In this document: positions 12,006-15,153 of the stretch, in pieces
How the letters are laid out: each line of letters starts with the position of its first letter
How positions within the stretch are numbered: position 1 is the stretch's first letter
The notes under the pieces: generated by a model
What the model saw: only the letters and a program-made list of their open reading frames with translations
The model's database searches: none
Told to the model about the DNA's origin: nothing
Program-made: the position numbers and the translations under genes
Assembly: GCA_913055735.1 (NCBI GenBank)
Contig: CAJXKD010000001.1
Location: forward strand, 2,018,281-2,082,280
Length of the DNA stretch: 64,000 nt
Source of the DNA: an uncultured Rhodospirillales bacterium
Lineage (GTDB): Bacteria; Pseudomonadota; Alphaproteobacteria; Rhodospirillales; UBA2165
Direction: 5' to 3'

Positions 12006-12028
12006 ATCCAGCTCCAGGGAGAAATTGA

Positions 12029-12997
12029 ATGGGAATGCTCGTAGACGGCAAATGGACGGACGAGGATCGCGTCAACGTCGGTGGCCGTTTTGTGCGATCG
12101 GAAAGCACATTTCGTGATTTCATCACTGCCGACGGATCATCCGGCTTCAAGGCCGAGCCCGGCAGATACCACCTCTATATCTCCCATAACTGACCCTGGG
12201 CTTACCGAACCGTGATGTTCCGGAAGCTCAAACACCTCGAAGATTTTATTGGCTTGTCCATCGTCGCCTCGACGCGAAGCGATCAAGGCTGGACCTTCAC
12301 CGGCGAAGAAGGCTGCACCGAGGATCACCTTTATGGCGCGACCTATATGCACGAGCTTTATACGCGTGCCGATCCTCACGTGACCTGCCGGGTGACGGTG
12401 CCGGTGCTGTGGGACAAACAGAAAGAAACCATCGTCAACAACGAAAGCTCGGAAATCATCCGCATGCTCAACGACGCATTCGTCGATTTGGCACCGCCGA
12501 GTCCCGACTACTATCCGGAAGAACTGCGGTCCGAGATCGACGAGATCAACGATTTTGTCTACGAGAACGTCAATAACGGCGTTTACCGGGCCGGTTTTGC
12601 GACCGCTCAGGAGGCCTATGAAGAAGGCTATGACAAGGTGTTTGCTGCCCTCGATGAGATCGAGGAGCGCCTCGGTAAGCAGCGCTATTTGGTCGGCGAC
12701 CGCCTGACCGAAGCGGATTGGCGCTTGTTTTCGACGCTGTTGCGTTTCGACCTTGTTTACTACGGATATTTCAAGTGCAACCGCCAGCACGTCTATGAAT
12801 ATCCCAACATCTGGAACTACACGCTGGAGCTTTATCAGCATCCGGGGATCGCCGAGGTGACCAACTTGGAGCACATCAAGAAGGGCTATTACTCCAAGGG
12901 CTTGCGCAATCCTTTTGGGATCGTCCCCAAAGGGCCCGATCTCGATCACTTGCAACTCCACGACCGGGAGCGTTTTCCGGCGTGGGCAGCAAACTGA
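12029..12997 (+). CDS. yqjG: Glutathionyl-hydroquinone reductase, candidate selenoprotein (in-frame TGA at catalytic Cys)
   Basis: Read through one TGA (12191-12193, codon 55) this is a full-length 322-residue YqjG/xi-class glutathione transferase (E. coli YqjG is 328). These enzymes reduce glutathionyl-hydroquinones using a Cys in the motif CPWAHR. Here the text is RYHLYISHN-TGA-PWAYR, so the TGA falls exactly on that Cys. Before it, MGMLVDGKWTD and STFRDFITADGSSGF are family-typical; after it come VPVLWDK, NNESSEIIRM, NNGVYRAGFATAQEAY and LTEADWRLFSTLLRFD. ATG 12029 follows CAGGGAG at ideal spacing, and no frameshift occurs on either side. A SECIS-like hairpin starts 4 bases after the TGA. 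Automated calling would start at 12212 or 12215 and lose the active site. The alternative is a one-base nonsense pseudogene. I favour selenocysteine, but selA/B/C/D are not in the window. Confidence 0.8.
12191..12229 (+). promoter_or_regulatory. Candidate bacterial SECIS element directly after the TGA
   Basis: After TGA (12191-12193) and CCCT, the bases fold as GGGCTT (12198-12203) with AAGCTC (12224-12229), one bulged A (12204), CCG (12205-12207) with CGG (12221-12223), one bulged C (12220), AAC (12208-12210) with GTT (12217-12219), and a 6-base loop CGTGAT (12211-12216). There are 12 pairs, one of them G-T. The loop begins 17 bases after the TGA, close to E. coli fdhF (about 18), and its second base is G followed by T, as bacterial SECIS models require. 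Confidence 0.7.
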
Positions 12998-13050: not shown

Positions 13051-15153
13051 ATGTCGGACGTCATCGATTTCGAAGTGCGCGGCGCCATTGGCGTCATCAC
13101 CATCAACAACCCGCCCGCGAATGCGTTGAGCTTCGCGGTCGACAAGGGATTGCACGAGGCGGTGCAGCGGTGCACGGCGGATGACGCGATCAAGGCCATG
13201 GTGATCACGGGTGGTGGCAAGATGTTCGTCGCCGGCGCCGATATCAGTGAGTTCGGCAAACCGCGTCCCGATGATGTGCCGGAACTCAACGACGTTATCG
13301 AAGGGATCGAGGCGAGCGACAAACCGGTTGTCGCGGCGCTCAACGGTCTGGCTCTGGGCGGCGGGCTTGAGCTCGCCATGTCCTGCCATTACCGGCTTGC
13401 GGCGCCCACCATCCAGGTGGGCCAGCCGGAAGTGAAACTGGGGTTCATCCCGGGAGCGGGCGGCACACAGCGGCTGCCGCGTCTCGCAGGCGTCGAGGCG
13501 GCCCTCGATATGATCGTCGGCGGCGATCCCATCAAGGCGCAGAAGGCGCTGGAATTGGGAATCGTCGACGAGTTGGTTGAGGGCGACGTGGTGGCCCGTG
13601 CGGTGGAATTCGCCGAAGAAGTGGCCGCCAAAGGCGGAGCGCCACGCCGTACCGGCGAACAAACCGACAAGATCAGCGGCGTCGATAAATCGGTGTTCGA
13701 CGCCTACCGCCGGAAGATTGCTCCCAAGTCACGCGGACTGGCAGCACCCTATGAATGCATCCGCATGGTCGAGGTGGCCGCGACCCTGCCGTTCGCGCAA
13801 GGGCTGGAAGAGGAACGCAAGGCGTTCGTCACGTTGCGTGACTCCGATCAGGCCGCTGCCATGCGCTACATGTTCTTTGCCGAGCGTGAAGTGGCCAAGG
13901 TGCCCGACGTGCCGCGCGACGTGCAGCCGATGAAAATCGCGTCAGCGGCGGTGGTTGGCTCGGGCACCATGGGTGGCGGCATCGCCATGTGCTTTGCGAA
14001 CGCGGGGGTGCCGGTGACGGTGACCGATATCAGCCAAGAGGCGTTGGATGCGGGGCTTGCCAAGGTAAAAGCGAATTACGAGGGCTCGGTGTCACGCGGG
14101 CGTTTGACCCAGGCACAGATGGATGAGCGCTTGGGCCTCATCTCTGGCTCGGTCGGCTACGACGGCGCCAAGGAAGCGGACATCGTCATCGAAGCGGTGT
14201 TCGAAGATATGGACCTCAAGAAAAAAATATTTGCCGATCTTGATGCGGTGATGAAGCCGGAGGCGATCCTCGCCTCCAATACCTCCACCCTCGATATCAA
14301 CGAACTGGCCGCGGTGACCAAGCGGCCGGACAAGGTCGTCGGCACGCACTTTTTTAGTCCGGCCAATGTGATGAAGCTGCTGGAAAACGTGCGCACCGAA
14401 ACGGCGTCGAAGGAAACCATCGCCACCGTCATGCAATTGTCGAAGGTTTTGGGCAAGGTGGGTGTCCTCGTCGGCGTCGGCGACGGGTTTGTCGGCAACC
14501 GGCTGTTGGGTTTTGCCTCCCGCATCGCAGAGTTCATGGTCGAGGAGGGCGCGCTCCCTTGGCAGGTGGATAAGGTGCTCTACGATTTCGGCTTCCCCAT
14601 GGGGCCGTTCGCGGTCAGCGACATGGCCGGCGTCGATATCCGCTACCTGTCGCGGCAGGGGCAGTTGAAGCTCTATCCGGGGCGGCGCAATCCGGTGCTC
14701 ACCGACAAGCTTTATGAAATGGGCCGACTGGGCCAGAAGACGGGCAAGGGCTGGTATCTGTATAAGGACGGCAGCCGCAAGGGCGAACCCGATCCCGAGA
14801 TCGAGAAGCTGATTGCCGAAACCTCAAAGGAACTGGGGATTGATCGGCGTCCTTTCAGCGACGAGGAAATCCTTGCGAATTACCTCTGCGCCTTGAGCAA
14901 CACCGGTGCGCATGTCCTCGATGAAGGTCTCGCCATCCGCGCCAGCGATATCGACGTTATCTGGCTCTACGGTTACGGCTTTCCCCGGCAGCACGGCGGG
15001 CCCATGTTCCACGCCGATCTCGTCGGCCTCGACAAGGTGCTGGCCAAGACCGAGGCCATGTTCCAGCTGTATGGCGATTGGATGAAGCCGGCCGGCCTTC
15101 TGAAGACGTTTGCTGCCGAAGGGAAGAAATTCAAGGACTACAAAGCGGGCTAA
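13051..15153 (+). CDS. 3-Hydroxyacyl-CoA dehydrogenase / enoyl-CoA hydratase (FadB/FadJ type)
   Basis: 700-residue bifunctional beta-oxidation enzyme. The hydratase half (1-190) has the oxyanion region MFVAGADISEF and the two catalytic glutamates E107 (GGLELAMSCH) and E127 (GQPEVKLGFIPGAGG). A linker is followed by the NAD-binding Rossmann site VVGSGTMGGGIAMCFANAG (about 297-315), the HFFSPANVMKLLE active-site His, and two C-terminal dehydrogenase domains (GFVGNRLLG; GYGFPRQHGGPM). Start ATG 13051 follows AGAGAG. It stands alone without a thiolase neighbour. It is preceded by the TGA-containing reductase with a 53-bp gap, and its stop overlaps that of the convergent methyltransferase. Confidence 0.93.
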   Translation: MSDVIDFEVRGAIGVITINNPPANALSFAVDKGLHEAVQRCTADDAIKAMVITGGGKMFVAGADISEFGKPRPDDVPELNDVIEGIEASDKPVVAALNGLALGGGLELAMSCHYRLAAPTIQVGQPEVKLGFIPGAGGTQRLPRLAGVEAALDMIVGGDPIKAQKALELGIVDELVEGDVVARAVEFAEEVAAKGGAPRRTGEQTDKISGVDKSVFDAYRRKIAPKSRGLAAPYECIRMVEVAATLPFAQGLEEERKAFVTLRDSDQAAAMRYMFFAEREVAKVPDVPRDVQPMKIASAAVVGSGTMGGGIAMCFANAGVPVTVTDISQEALDAGLAKVKANYEGSVSRGRLTQAQMDERLGLISGSVGYDGAKEADIVIEAVFEDMDLKKKIFADLDAVMKPEAILASNTSTLDINELAAVTKRPDKVVGTHFFSPANVMKLLENVRTETASKETIATVMQLSKVLGKVGVLVGVGDGFVGNRLLGFASRIAEFMVEEGALPWQVDKVLYDFGFPMGPFAVSDMAGVDIRYLSRQGQLKLYPGRRNPVLTDKLYEMGRLGQKTGKGWYLYKDGSRKGEPDPEIEKLIAETSKELGIDRRPFSDEEILANYLCALSNTGAHVLDEGLAIRASDIDVIWLYGYGFPRQHGGPMFHADLVGLDKVLAKTEAMFQLYGDWMKPAGLLKTFAAEGKKFKDYKAG

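What the first reader, a model, noticed from the sequence alone, without database searches (positions are those of the whole stretch)
12029..12997. Glutathionyl-hydroquinone reductase with an in-frame TGA exactly at the catalytic cysteine: candidate selenoprotein
Seen: a perfect ribosome site, ATG 12029, 54 codons of family-typical sequence, TGA at 12191-12193, then 267 more codons to a normal C-terminus with no frameshift. Aligned by eye with E. coli YqjG (RYHLYVSLACPWAHR), the text is RYHLYISHN-TGA-PWAYR, so the stop codon sits on the redox Cys. Established: UGA at redox-Cys positions is the signature of selenoprotein genes, and selenocysteine forms of thioredoxin-fold enzymes are known. A random nonsense change hitting this one codon of 322 is unlikely. 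The companion change of His to Tyr in PWAYR and of LA to HN before the TGA is also notable. An automated annotation would start at 12212 and describe a truncated GST without active site. A Sec version of this enzyme class would be new to me, though UGA-containing GST homologues may have been listed in metagenome surveys.
Basis: partly seen in the sequence, partly recalled or inferred. Interest (0 to 1): 0.95.

Follow-up and report, generated by a model that had tools for sequence, protein, structure and literature searches.

The report
Selenium version of a quinone-detoxifying enzyme
A bacterial gene resembling quinone-detoxifying glutathione enzymes carries UGA, normally a stop codon, exactly where its relatives have their catalytic cysteine; three related species share that UGA and a predicted RNA hairpin after it, and all four genomes hold the selenocysteine machinery genes, so the gene likely makes a selenium-containing form of this enzyme, one we found no earlier report of.

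Summary
Window 12029-12997 (+) is one frame whose only internal stop is TGA 12191-12193. It aligns with the catalytic Cys of Xi-class glutathione transferases (glutathionyl-hydroquinone reductases, GHR): Cys57 of NmGHR, residue 63 of E. coli YqjG. The same genome has tRNA-Sec, selA, selB, selD and two more genes of known selenoprotein families with in-frame TGA. The TGA recurs at the same codon in three species of another genus, also with Sec machinery; the other 26 of 30 aligned loci have TGC/TGT. A SECIS-like hairpin after the TGA keeps 13 of 13 pairs in all four TGA genes, 6-11 in the 26 Cys genes. Both sides of the TGA are under purifying selection, against pseudogene, error or re-initiation. 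Cys120, beside the glutathione site, is: all four Sec forms, none of 26 Cys homologues. A 'GST-like' selenoprotein (COG0625) has been listed since 2005, so Sec in the GST superfamily is not new; Sec in the GHR/Xi class was not found by my searches of the held papers. Selenium incorporation and activity are untested.

The parts
12016..12022 (+). ribosome-binding site AGGGAGA
   Evidence: read in the sequence
12029..12997 (+). gene of the predicted Sec-containing glutathionyl-hydroquinone reductase, 322 codons plus stop
12191..12193 (+). in-frame TGA, predicted selenocysteine 55, at the catalytic-Cys codon (UPWA instead of CPWA)
12197..12230 (+). predicted SECIS-like hairpin, 13 pairs
12211..12216 (+). 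apical loop CGUGAU with G as its second base; 17 nt lie between the UGA and the loop
12386..12388 (+). Cys120 codon (TGC), Sec-clade-specific cysteine beside the glutathione site; candidate resolving cysteine (untested)
12584..12586 (+). Tyr186, first tyrosine of the Xi-class triad
12758..12760 (+). Tyr244, second tyrosine of the triad
12887..12889 (+). Tyr287, third tyrosine of the triad
12995..12997 (+). terminal TGA stop of the same gene
13051..15153 (+). neighbour, not part of the feature: enoyl-CoA hydratase / 3-hydroxyacyl-CoA dehydrogenase, next to the GHR gene in 21 of 21 loci of the family; marks orthology

Best explanation
The gene at 12029-12997 likely encodes a selenocysteine form of glutathionyl-hydroquinone reductase, in which the in-frame UGA at the catalytic-cysteine codon would be read as selenocysteine by SelB and tRNA-Sec with the help of the predicted hairpin just after it. 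Shown: the place of the UGA, its recurrence in three related species, the pattern of hairpin pairs, the presence of tRNA-Sec, selA, selB and selD genes, and purifying selection on both halves. Inferred: that the ribosome inserts selenocysteine here. Inferred from the enzyme family: Sec55 attacks the glutathionyl group of a glutathionyl-(hydro)quinone, forms a selenenyl-sulfide with glutathione, releases the hydroquinone and is reset by a second glutathione; Cys120 may help the reset.
For: TGA exactly at the catalytic Cys codon; same TGA in G010, G015, G017 and Cys codons in the other 26 of the 30 best loci; the Sec forms are one side of a branch, support 87/86. tRNA-Sec 79.8 bits with anticodon TCA, selB, selA, selD in the own genome; the same four in G010, G015, G017. 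Two other in-frame-TGA genes of known selenoprotein families in the own genome: SelD and GrdB-like. Hairpin: 13 of 13 pairs in 4 of 4 TGA genes against 6-11 of 13 in 26 Cys genes; hairpin codons identical 9 of 9 between the window gene and each g11 gene, against about 59% in the rest. dN well below dS before and after the TGA. Tyrosine triad and glutathione-site residues kept; glutathione synthetase gene present.
Against: No protein or selenium data. The hairpin is only mildly special by energy (z -1.87; 10 of 200 shuffles fold as well); a loose SECIS geometry rule also passes 8 of 26 Cys genes; its pairs never vary among the TGA genes, so there is no covariation; and the pairs scored come from the window gene's own fold, which favours its close relatives. 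The nine-codon identity is not unique: 5, 3 and 3 other overlapping 9/9 windows exist in the three comparisons. The three g11 species are close relatives, so there are in effect two independent lineages. Rfam found no SECIS match in the window at gathering scores. Reductase activity rests on homology.
Confidence: 0.92

Rival explanations
1. Pseudogene or sequencing/assembly error: the TGA is a nonsense change, or a misread TGC or TGT.
For: A single TGA in an otherwise normal gene is what a fresh nonsense change looks like.
Against: The same TGA in four separately assembled genomes of two genera; dN well below dS on both sides, also among the three close species; one hairpin shared by the TGA genes.
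Confidence: 0.02
2. The UGA is a true stop and a shorter C-terminal protein is made by re-initiation at 12212 or 12215, without the active site.
For: In-frame GTG 12212 and ATG 12215 follow; the database holds this 260-residue version, which is a prediction only.
Against: The 54 codons before the UGA are under purifying selection and align with the family from residue 1; the fragment would lack the N-terminal active-site motif; the Sec machinery is present.
Confidence: 0.03
3. The UGA is read as an ordinary amino acid such as Trp, by suppression or a changed code.
For: Only that the frame stays open; UGA suppression is known in principle (recalled, no call).
Against: The gene itself ends in TGA; the genome has a full Sec system; homologues have Cys, not Trp, here (26 of 30 loci; 116 of 120 database hits, the other 4 not matching the motif).
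Confidence: 0.02

Closest known systems
Xi-class glutathione transferases / glutathionyl-hydroquinone reductases (E. coli YqjG, Sphingobium PcpF, yeast ECM4, Natrialba NmGHR)
   Same: Full-length homology (6gzf 1.2e-102, 3r3e 5.3e-101), PWA motif, tyrosine triad, glutathione-site residues
   Different: The strictly conserved CPWA of the family is UPWA here; Cys120 is added
GST-like selenoprotein (COG0625), Sargasso Sea 2005 and GOS 2008 surveys, listed in reviews of 2022 and 2026
   Same: Sec in a GST-superfamily protein; the 2026 review gives PF13409, which also matches the window protein
   Different: Filed under COG0625; GHR proteins belong to COG0435 (recalled, no call). Its sequences could not be fetched, so identity or difference of subclass is not settled
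Bacterial thiol-redox selenoproteins (Trx, Grx, Prx, AhpD-like, DsbA-like and others)
   Same: UGA at a redox-Cys position with a hairpin with a loop G just after it, as described in PMC1088965
   Different: Two-domain GST-fold enzyme; no UxxC or CxxU motif around the Sec

Membership tests
Bacterial selenoprotein | In-frame UGA aligned with a Cys conserved in homologues | tested here: met
[quoted passage not shown]
   moderate specificity (8 of 26 Cys genes pass a loose rule)
Bacterial selenoprotein | selA, selB, selD and tRNA-Sec in the genome | tested here: met
Bacterial selenoprotein | The same UGA in other species | tested here: met
   3 species of another genus
Bacterial selenoprotein | Selenium in the protein | not testable with these tools
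   needs 75Se labelling or mass spectrometry
Xi-class GST / GHR | Full-length similarity to solved Xi-class enzymes | tested here: met
Xi-class GST / GHR | Strictly conserved CPWA motif | tested here: inconclusive
   PWA is kept and Cys is replaced by the predicted Sec; met if Sec counts as the Cys equivalent
Xi-class GST / GHR | Tyrosine triad | tested here: met
   Tyr186, Tyr244, Tyr287 align with Tyr189, Tyr247, Tyr290 of NmGHR
Xi-class GST / GHR | Reduction of glutathionyl-(hydro)quinones; Xi-type dimer | not testable with these tools
Previously listed GST-like selenoprotein (COG0625) | Orthology with the Sargasso Sea / GOS sequences | not testable with these tools
   sequences and supplements not available; a GTDB r220 scan for the Sec-GHR motif found only the three relatives, which suggests, without proving it, that the marine surveys saw something else

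The most novel reading that the evidence does not exclude
The Sec-GHR is not a mere one-atom swap: Sec55 and the clade-specific Cys120 beside the glutathione site form a selenenyl-sulfide redox pair, turning a single-cysteine glutathione-dependent reductase into a Sec/Cys enzyme with faster or oxidation-resistant turnover and possibly new substrates such as peroxides.
Probability: 0.22. Interest if true: 0.75.

Novelty: new variant of a known kind. Interest (0 to 1): 0.6.

Why it matters
It would add the GHR/Xi class, a quinone-detoxifying enzyme family found in bacteria, fungi, plants and archaea, to the enzymes that use selenocysteine. Because Cys and Sec orthologues sit at the same gene position in one bacterial family that largely keeps the Sec machinery, it offers a clean natural pair for asking what selenium buys over sulfur. 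It is also an example of an active-site enzyme that gene prediction cuts short.

Tried and rejected
Rejected: pseudogene or error (same TGA in four genomes; purifying selection); re-initiated fragment; UGA as Trp; HN and PWAYR as Sec companions. Two other hits marked '1 TGA' (G060, G023) were looked at: in both the TGA is the stop near the C-terminus. Hits marked TAA or TAG were not looked at one by one.

Led nowhere or weak: Rfam scan of the window (two tRNAs only); a PF13409 search in 385 genomes of the class to find other Sec GSTs (swamped by ordinary GSTs; no row of its capped list showed a stop inside); the loose SECIS geometry test (4 of 4 TGA genes, 8 of 26 Cys genes; Fisher p 0.018); NCBIfam (nothing near a cut-off). 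P0111, a metagenomic 255-residue homologue that starts just after the site, might be another Sec form, but it has Gly where the Sec forms have Cys120 and its DNA was not fetched. One script failed and was corrected. The U55-Cys120 distance could not be measured: no model was made.

Full report
OBSERVATION. The frame 12029-12997 (+) has two stop codons, TGA 12191-12193 and the terminal TGA 12995-12997. Read with TGA=U it gives a 322-residue protein. Its solved relatives are Xi-class glutathione transferases: 6gzf (1.2e-102), E. coli YqjG 3r3e (5.3e-101), 4fqu, 4uss and others. In the alignment with 6gzf, U55 falls on chain position 64, which is Cys57 of NmGHR once an offset of 7 is taken off; Tyr186, Tyr244 and Tyr287 fall on Tyr189, Tyr247 and Tyr290, the triad named in PMC6345682 (passages read; 6GZF is that paper's deposit). 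Counting along the same call, U55 falls on residue 63 of YqjG. In 24 aligned proteins (24 of the 121 then held) the Cys/Sec position, Pro-Trp-Ala, Glu139, Ser140 and the three tyrosines are invariant.

RECURRENCE. A search of 199 whole genomes (the own one, 23 of its family, the rest of its order) gave matches in 98. The 30 loci fetched, the best-scoring matches, were aligned: TGA at this codon in 4 (window, G010, G015, G017), TGC or TGT in 26. A pattern for the Sec form matched 4 of 317 genomes of the order, the same four, and 3 stretches in the GTDB r220 species collection, which may leave out the window's own genome; these are the three relatives, titled Rhodospirillales MAGs RHO1_bin_29, jk18x9bins.84 and jk18x27bins.37. 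A looser pattern matched 1 of 385 genomes sampled from the class, the own one. The Sec form is therefore rare and, as far as tested, known from two genera of one family. In a tree of the 30 proteins the four Sec forms are one side of a branch with support 87/86, and a Cys form of the same family (G006) is next to them, 82/85. The enoyl-CoA hydratase / 3-hydroxyacyl-CoA dehydrogenase gene lies beside the GHR gene in 21 of 21 loci of the family, the window included, and the YCII gene in 10 of 21, so Sec and Cys forms are orthologues in place.

MACHINERY. The own genome has tRNA-Sec (79.8 bits, anticodon TCA), selB (461 bits), selA (613.8 bits) and selD (403.6 bits). SelD itself has an in-frame TGA (GGG-U-GC), and a GrdB-like gene (PF07355, 5.9e-10) next to selA has one in U-PLC, followed by a hairpin. 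G010, G015 and G017 also have tRNA-Sec, selD, selA and selB. In the family, tRNA-Sec hits above 70 bits were found in 15 of 24 genomes and selD over its cut-off in 19 of 24. G006, whose GHR has Cys, also has Sec machinery, so a Cys form does not mean loss of the trait.

HAIRPIN. The RNA after the UGA folds into a 13-pair hairpin, 12197-12230, with loop CGUGAU at 12211-12216; 17 nt lie between the UGA and the loop. The predicted fold of the other three TGA genes contains the same hairpin. Scoring its 13 pairs over the 30 loci gives 13, 13, 13, 13 for the TGA genes and 6-11 (mean 8.3) for the 26 Cys genes. Between the window gene and each g11 gene the 9 comparable codons in the hairpin are identical 9 of 9, against 121 of 205, 122 of 207 and 121 of 206 in the rest; against the 26 Cys genes the hairpin codons agree in 0-4 of 4-9. 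Against: by energy alone the hairpin is only mildly special (z -1.87, 10 of 200 shuffles fold as well); other nine-codon windows are also 9/9 (5, 3 and 3 besides the hairpin, overlapping, of 206, 208 and 207); a loose geometry rule passes 8 of 26 Cys genes; the pairs show no covariation; and the structure scored was derived from the window gene, which favours its close relatives.

SELECTION. Nei-Gojobori estimates, window against L022: dN 0.16 and dS 1.77 before the TGA, 0.23 and 0.94 after it; among the three g11 species dN/dS is about 0.12 or less on both sides. Both halves are constrained, as expected if they make one protein.

COMPANION RESIDUES. Nine positions are shared by all four Sec forms and by at most 2 of the 26 Cys forms; six of these by none of the 26. 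One of the six is Cys120 (Gly in 25, Ser in 1 of the Cys forms). Of 122 held protein records, 104 could be read at this position by a motif: 102 have Gly, and the 2 with Cys are both the window protein. 6gzf also has Cys there, beside its own catalytic Cys, so Cys here is not tied to Sec in the whole class. By spacing, Arg121, Val124, Glu139 and Ser140 would match Arg155, Val158, Glu173 and Ser174 of yeast ECM4, which contact glutathione (PMC5063366, passages read; the match is my inference). With one clade of Sec forms, shared ancestry explains Cys120 as well as function does.

MECHANISM. In yeast ECM4 the catalytic Cys46 was seen bound to glutathione (PMC5063366). By inference Sec55 would do the same as a selenenyl-sulfide, releasing the hydroquinone, and a second glutathione would reset it. 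The own genome has a glutathione synthetase gene (425.5 bits).

NOVELTY. A GST selenoprotein under COG0625 was listed in 2005 with 4 Sargasso Sea sequences (PMC1088965: outline with abstract, sections 8 and 24, passages), in 2008 with 12 as I read the table row (PMC2398784: passages and part 1 of section 6), and in reviews of 2022 and 2026 (PMC9312934 and PMC13188914: passages). None of the passages I saw says which GST subclass it is. Searches of the held library for GHR with selenocysteine, Xi class with selenocysteine, ECM4 with selenocysteine and glutathione transferase with selenoprotein, selenocysteine and Alphaproteobacteria found 0 papers; GHR with 'selen' found 3, by title on selenium nanoparticles, plant GST expression and mercury response (listing only). 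Most subscription papers, preprints and all supplements were out of reach. I therefore call it a new variant of a known kind: a Sec form of a known enzyme class.

Noticed in passing
L018:16850-18148 (+), own genome C1: GrdB-like selenoprotein gene (PF07355) with an in-frame TGA in U-PLC and a hairpin after it, divergent from selA-selB.
   Followed up: partly
L074:1319-2362 (-), own genome C1:343417-344343: selD with an in-frame TGA, predicted Sec-SelD (GGG-U-GCKIAP); 17 of the 19 over-cut-off selD hits in the family also have a TGA inside; its place was checked in the own genome only.
   Followed up: partly
L018:9064-11826 (+), own genome C1: Molybdopterin oxidoreductase gene, open without a TGA, between tRNA-Sec and selB.
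   Followed up: no
G006:C33:2489-2579 and G006:C89:6110-6200: Two strong tRNA-Sec hits (81.5 and 79.3 bits) in one relative's genome.
   Followed up: no
G001 and G011 (genus g2): No tRNA-Sec hit above 47.6 bits and no selD over the cut-off: the Sec trait may be lost there, with a Cys GHR kept (L033, L032); selA and selB were not searched in these two.
   Followed up: no
P0111 (metagenomic contig of 2237 bases): A 255-residue homologue, 74% identical, that starts just after the Sec site; possibly another truncated Sec form, but Gly at the Cys120 position.
   Followed up: partly
G075:C32:17524-17993: Three consecutive pieces of a GHR homologue, apparently a decayed copy; the same genome has a better full-length match on C10.
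   Followed up: no
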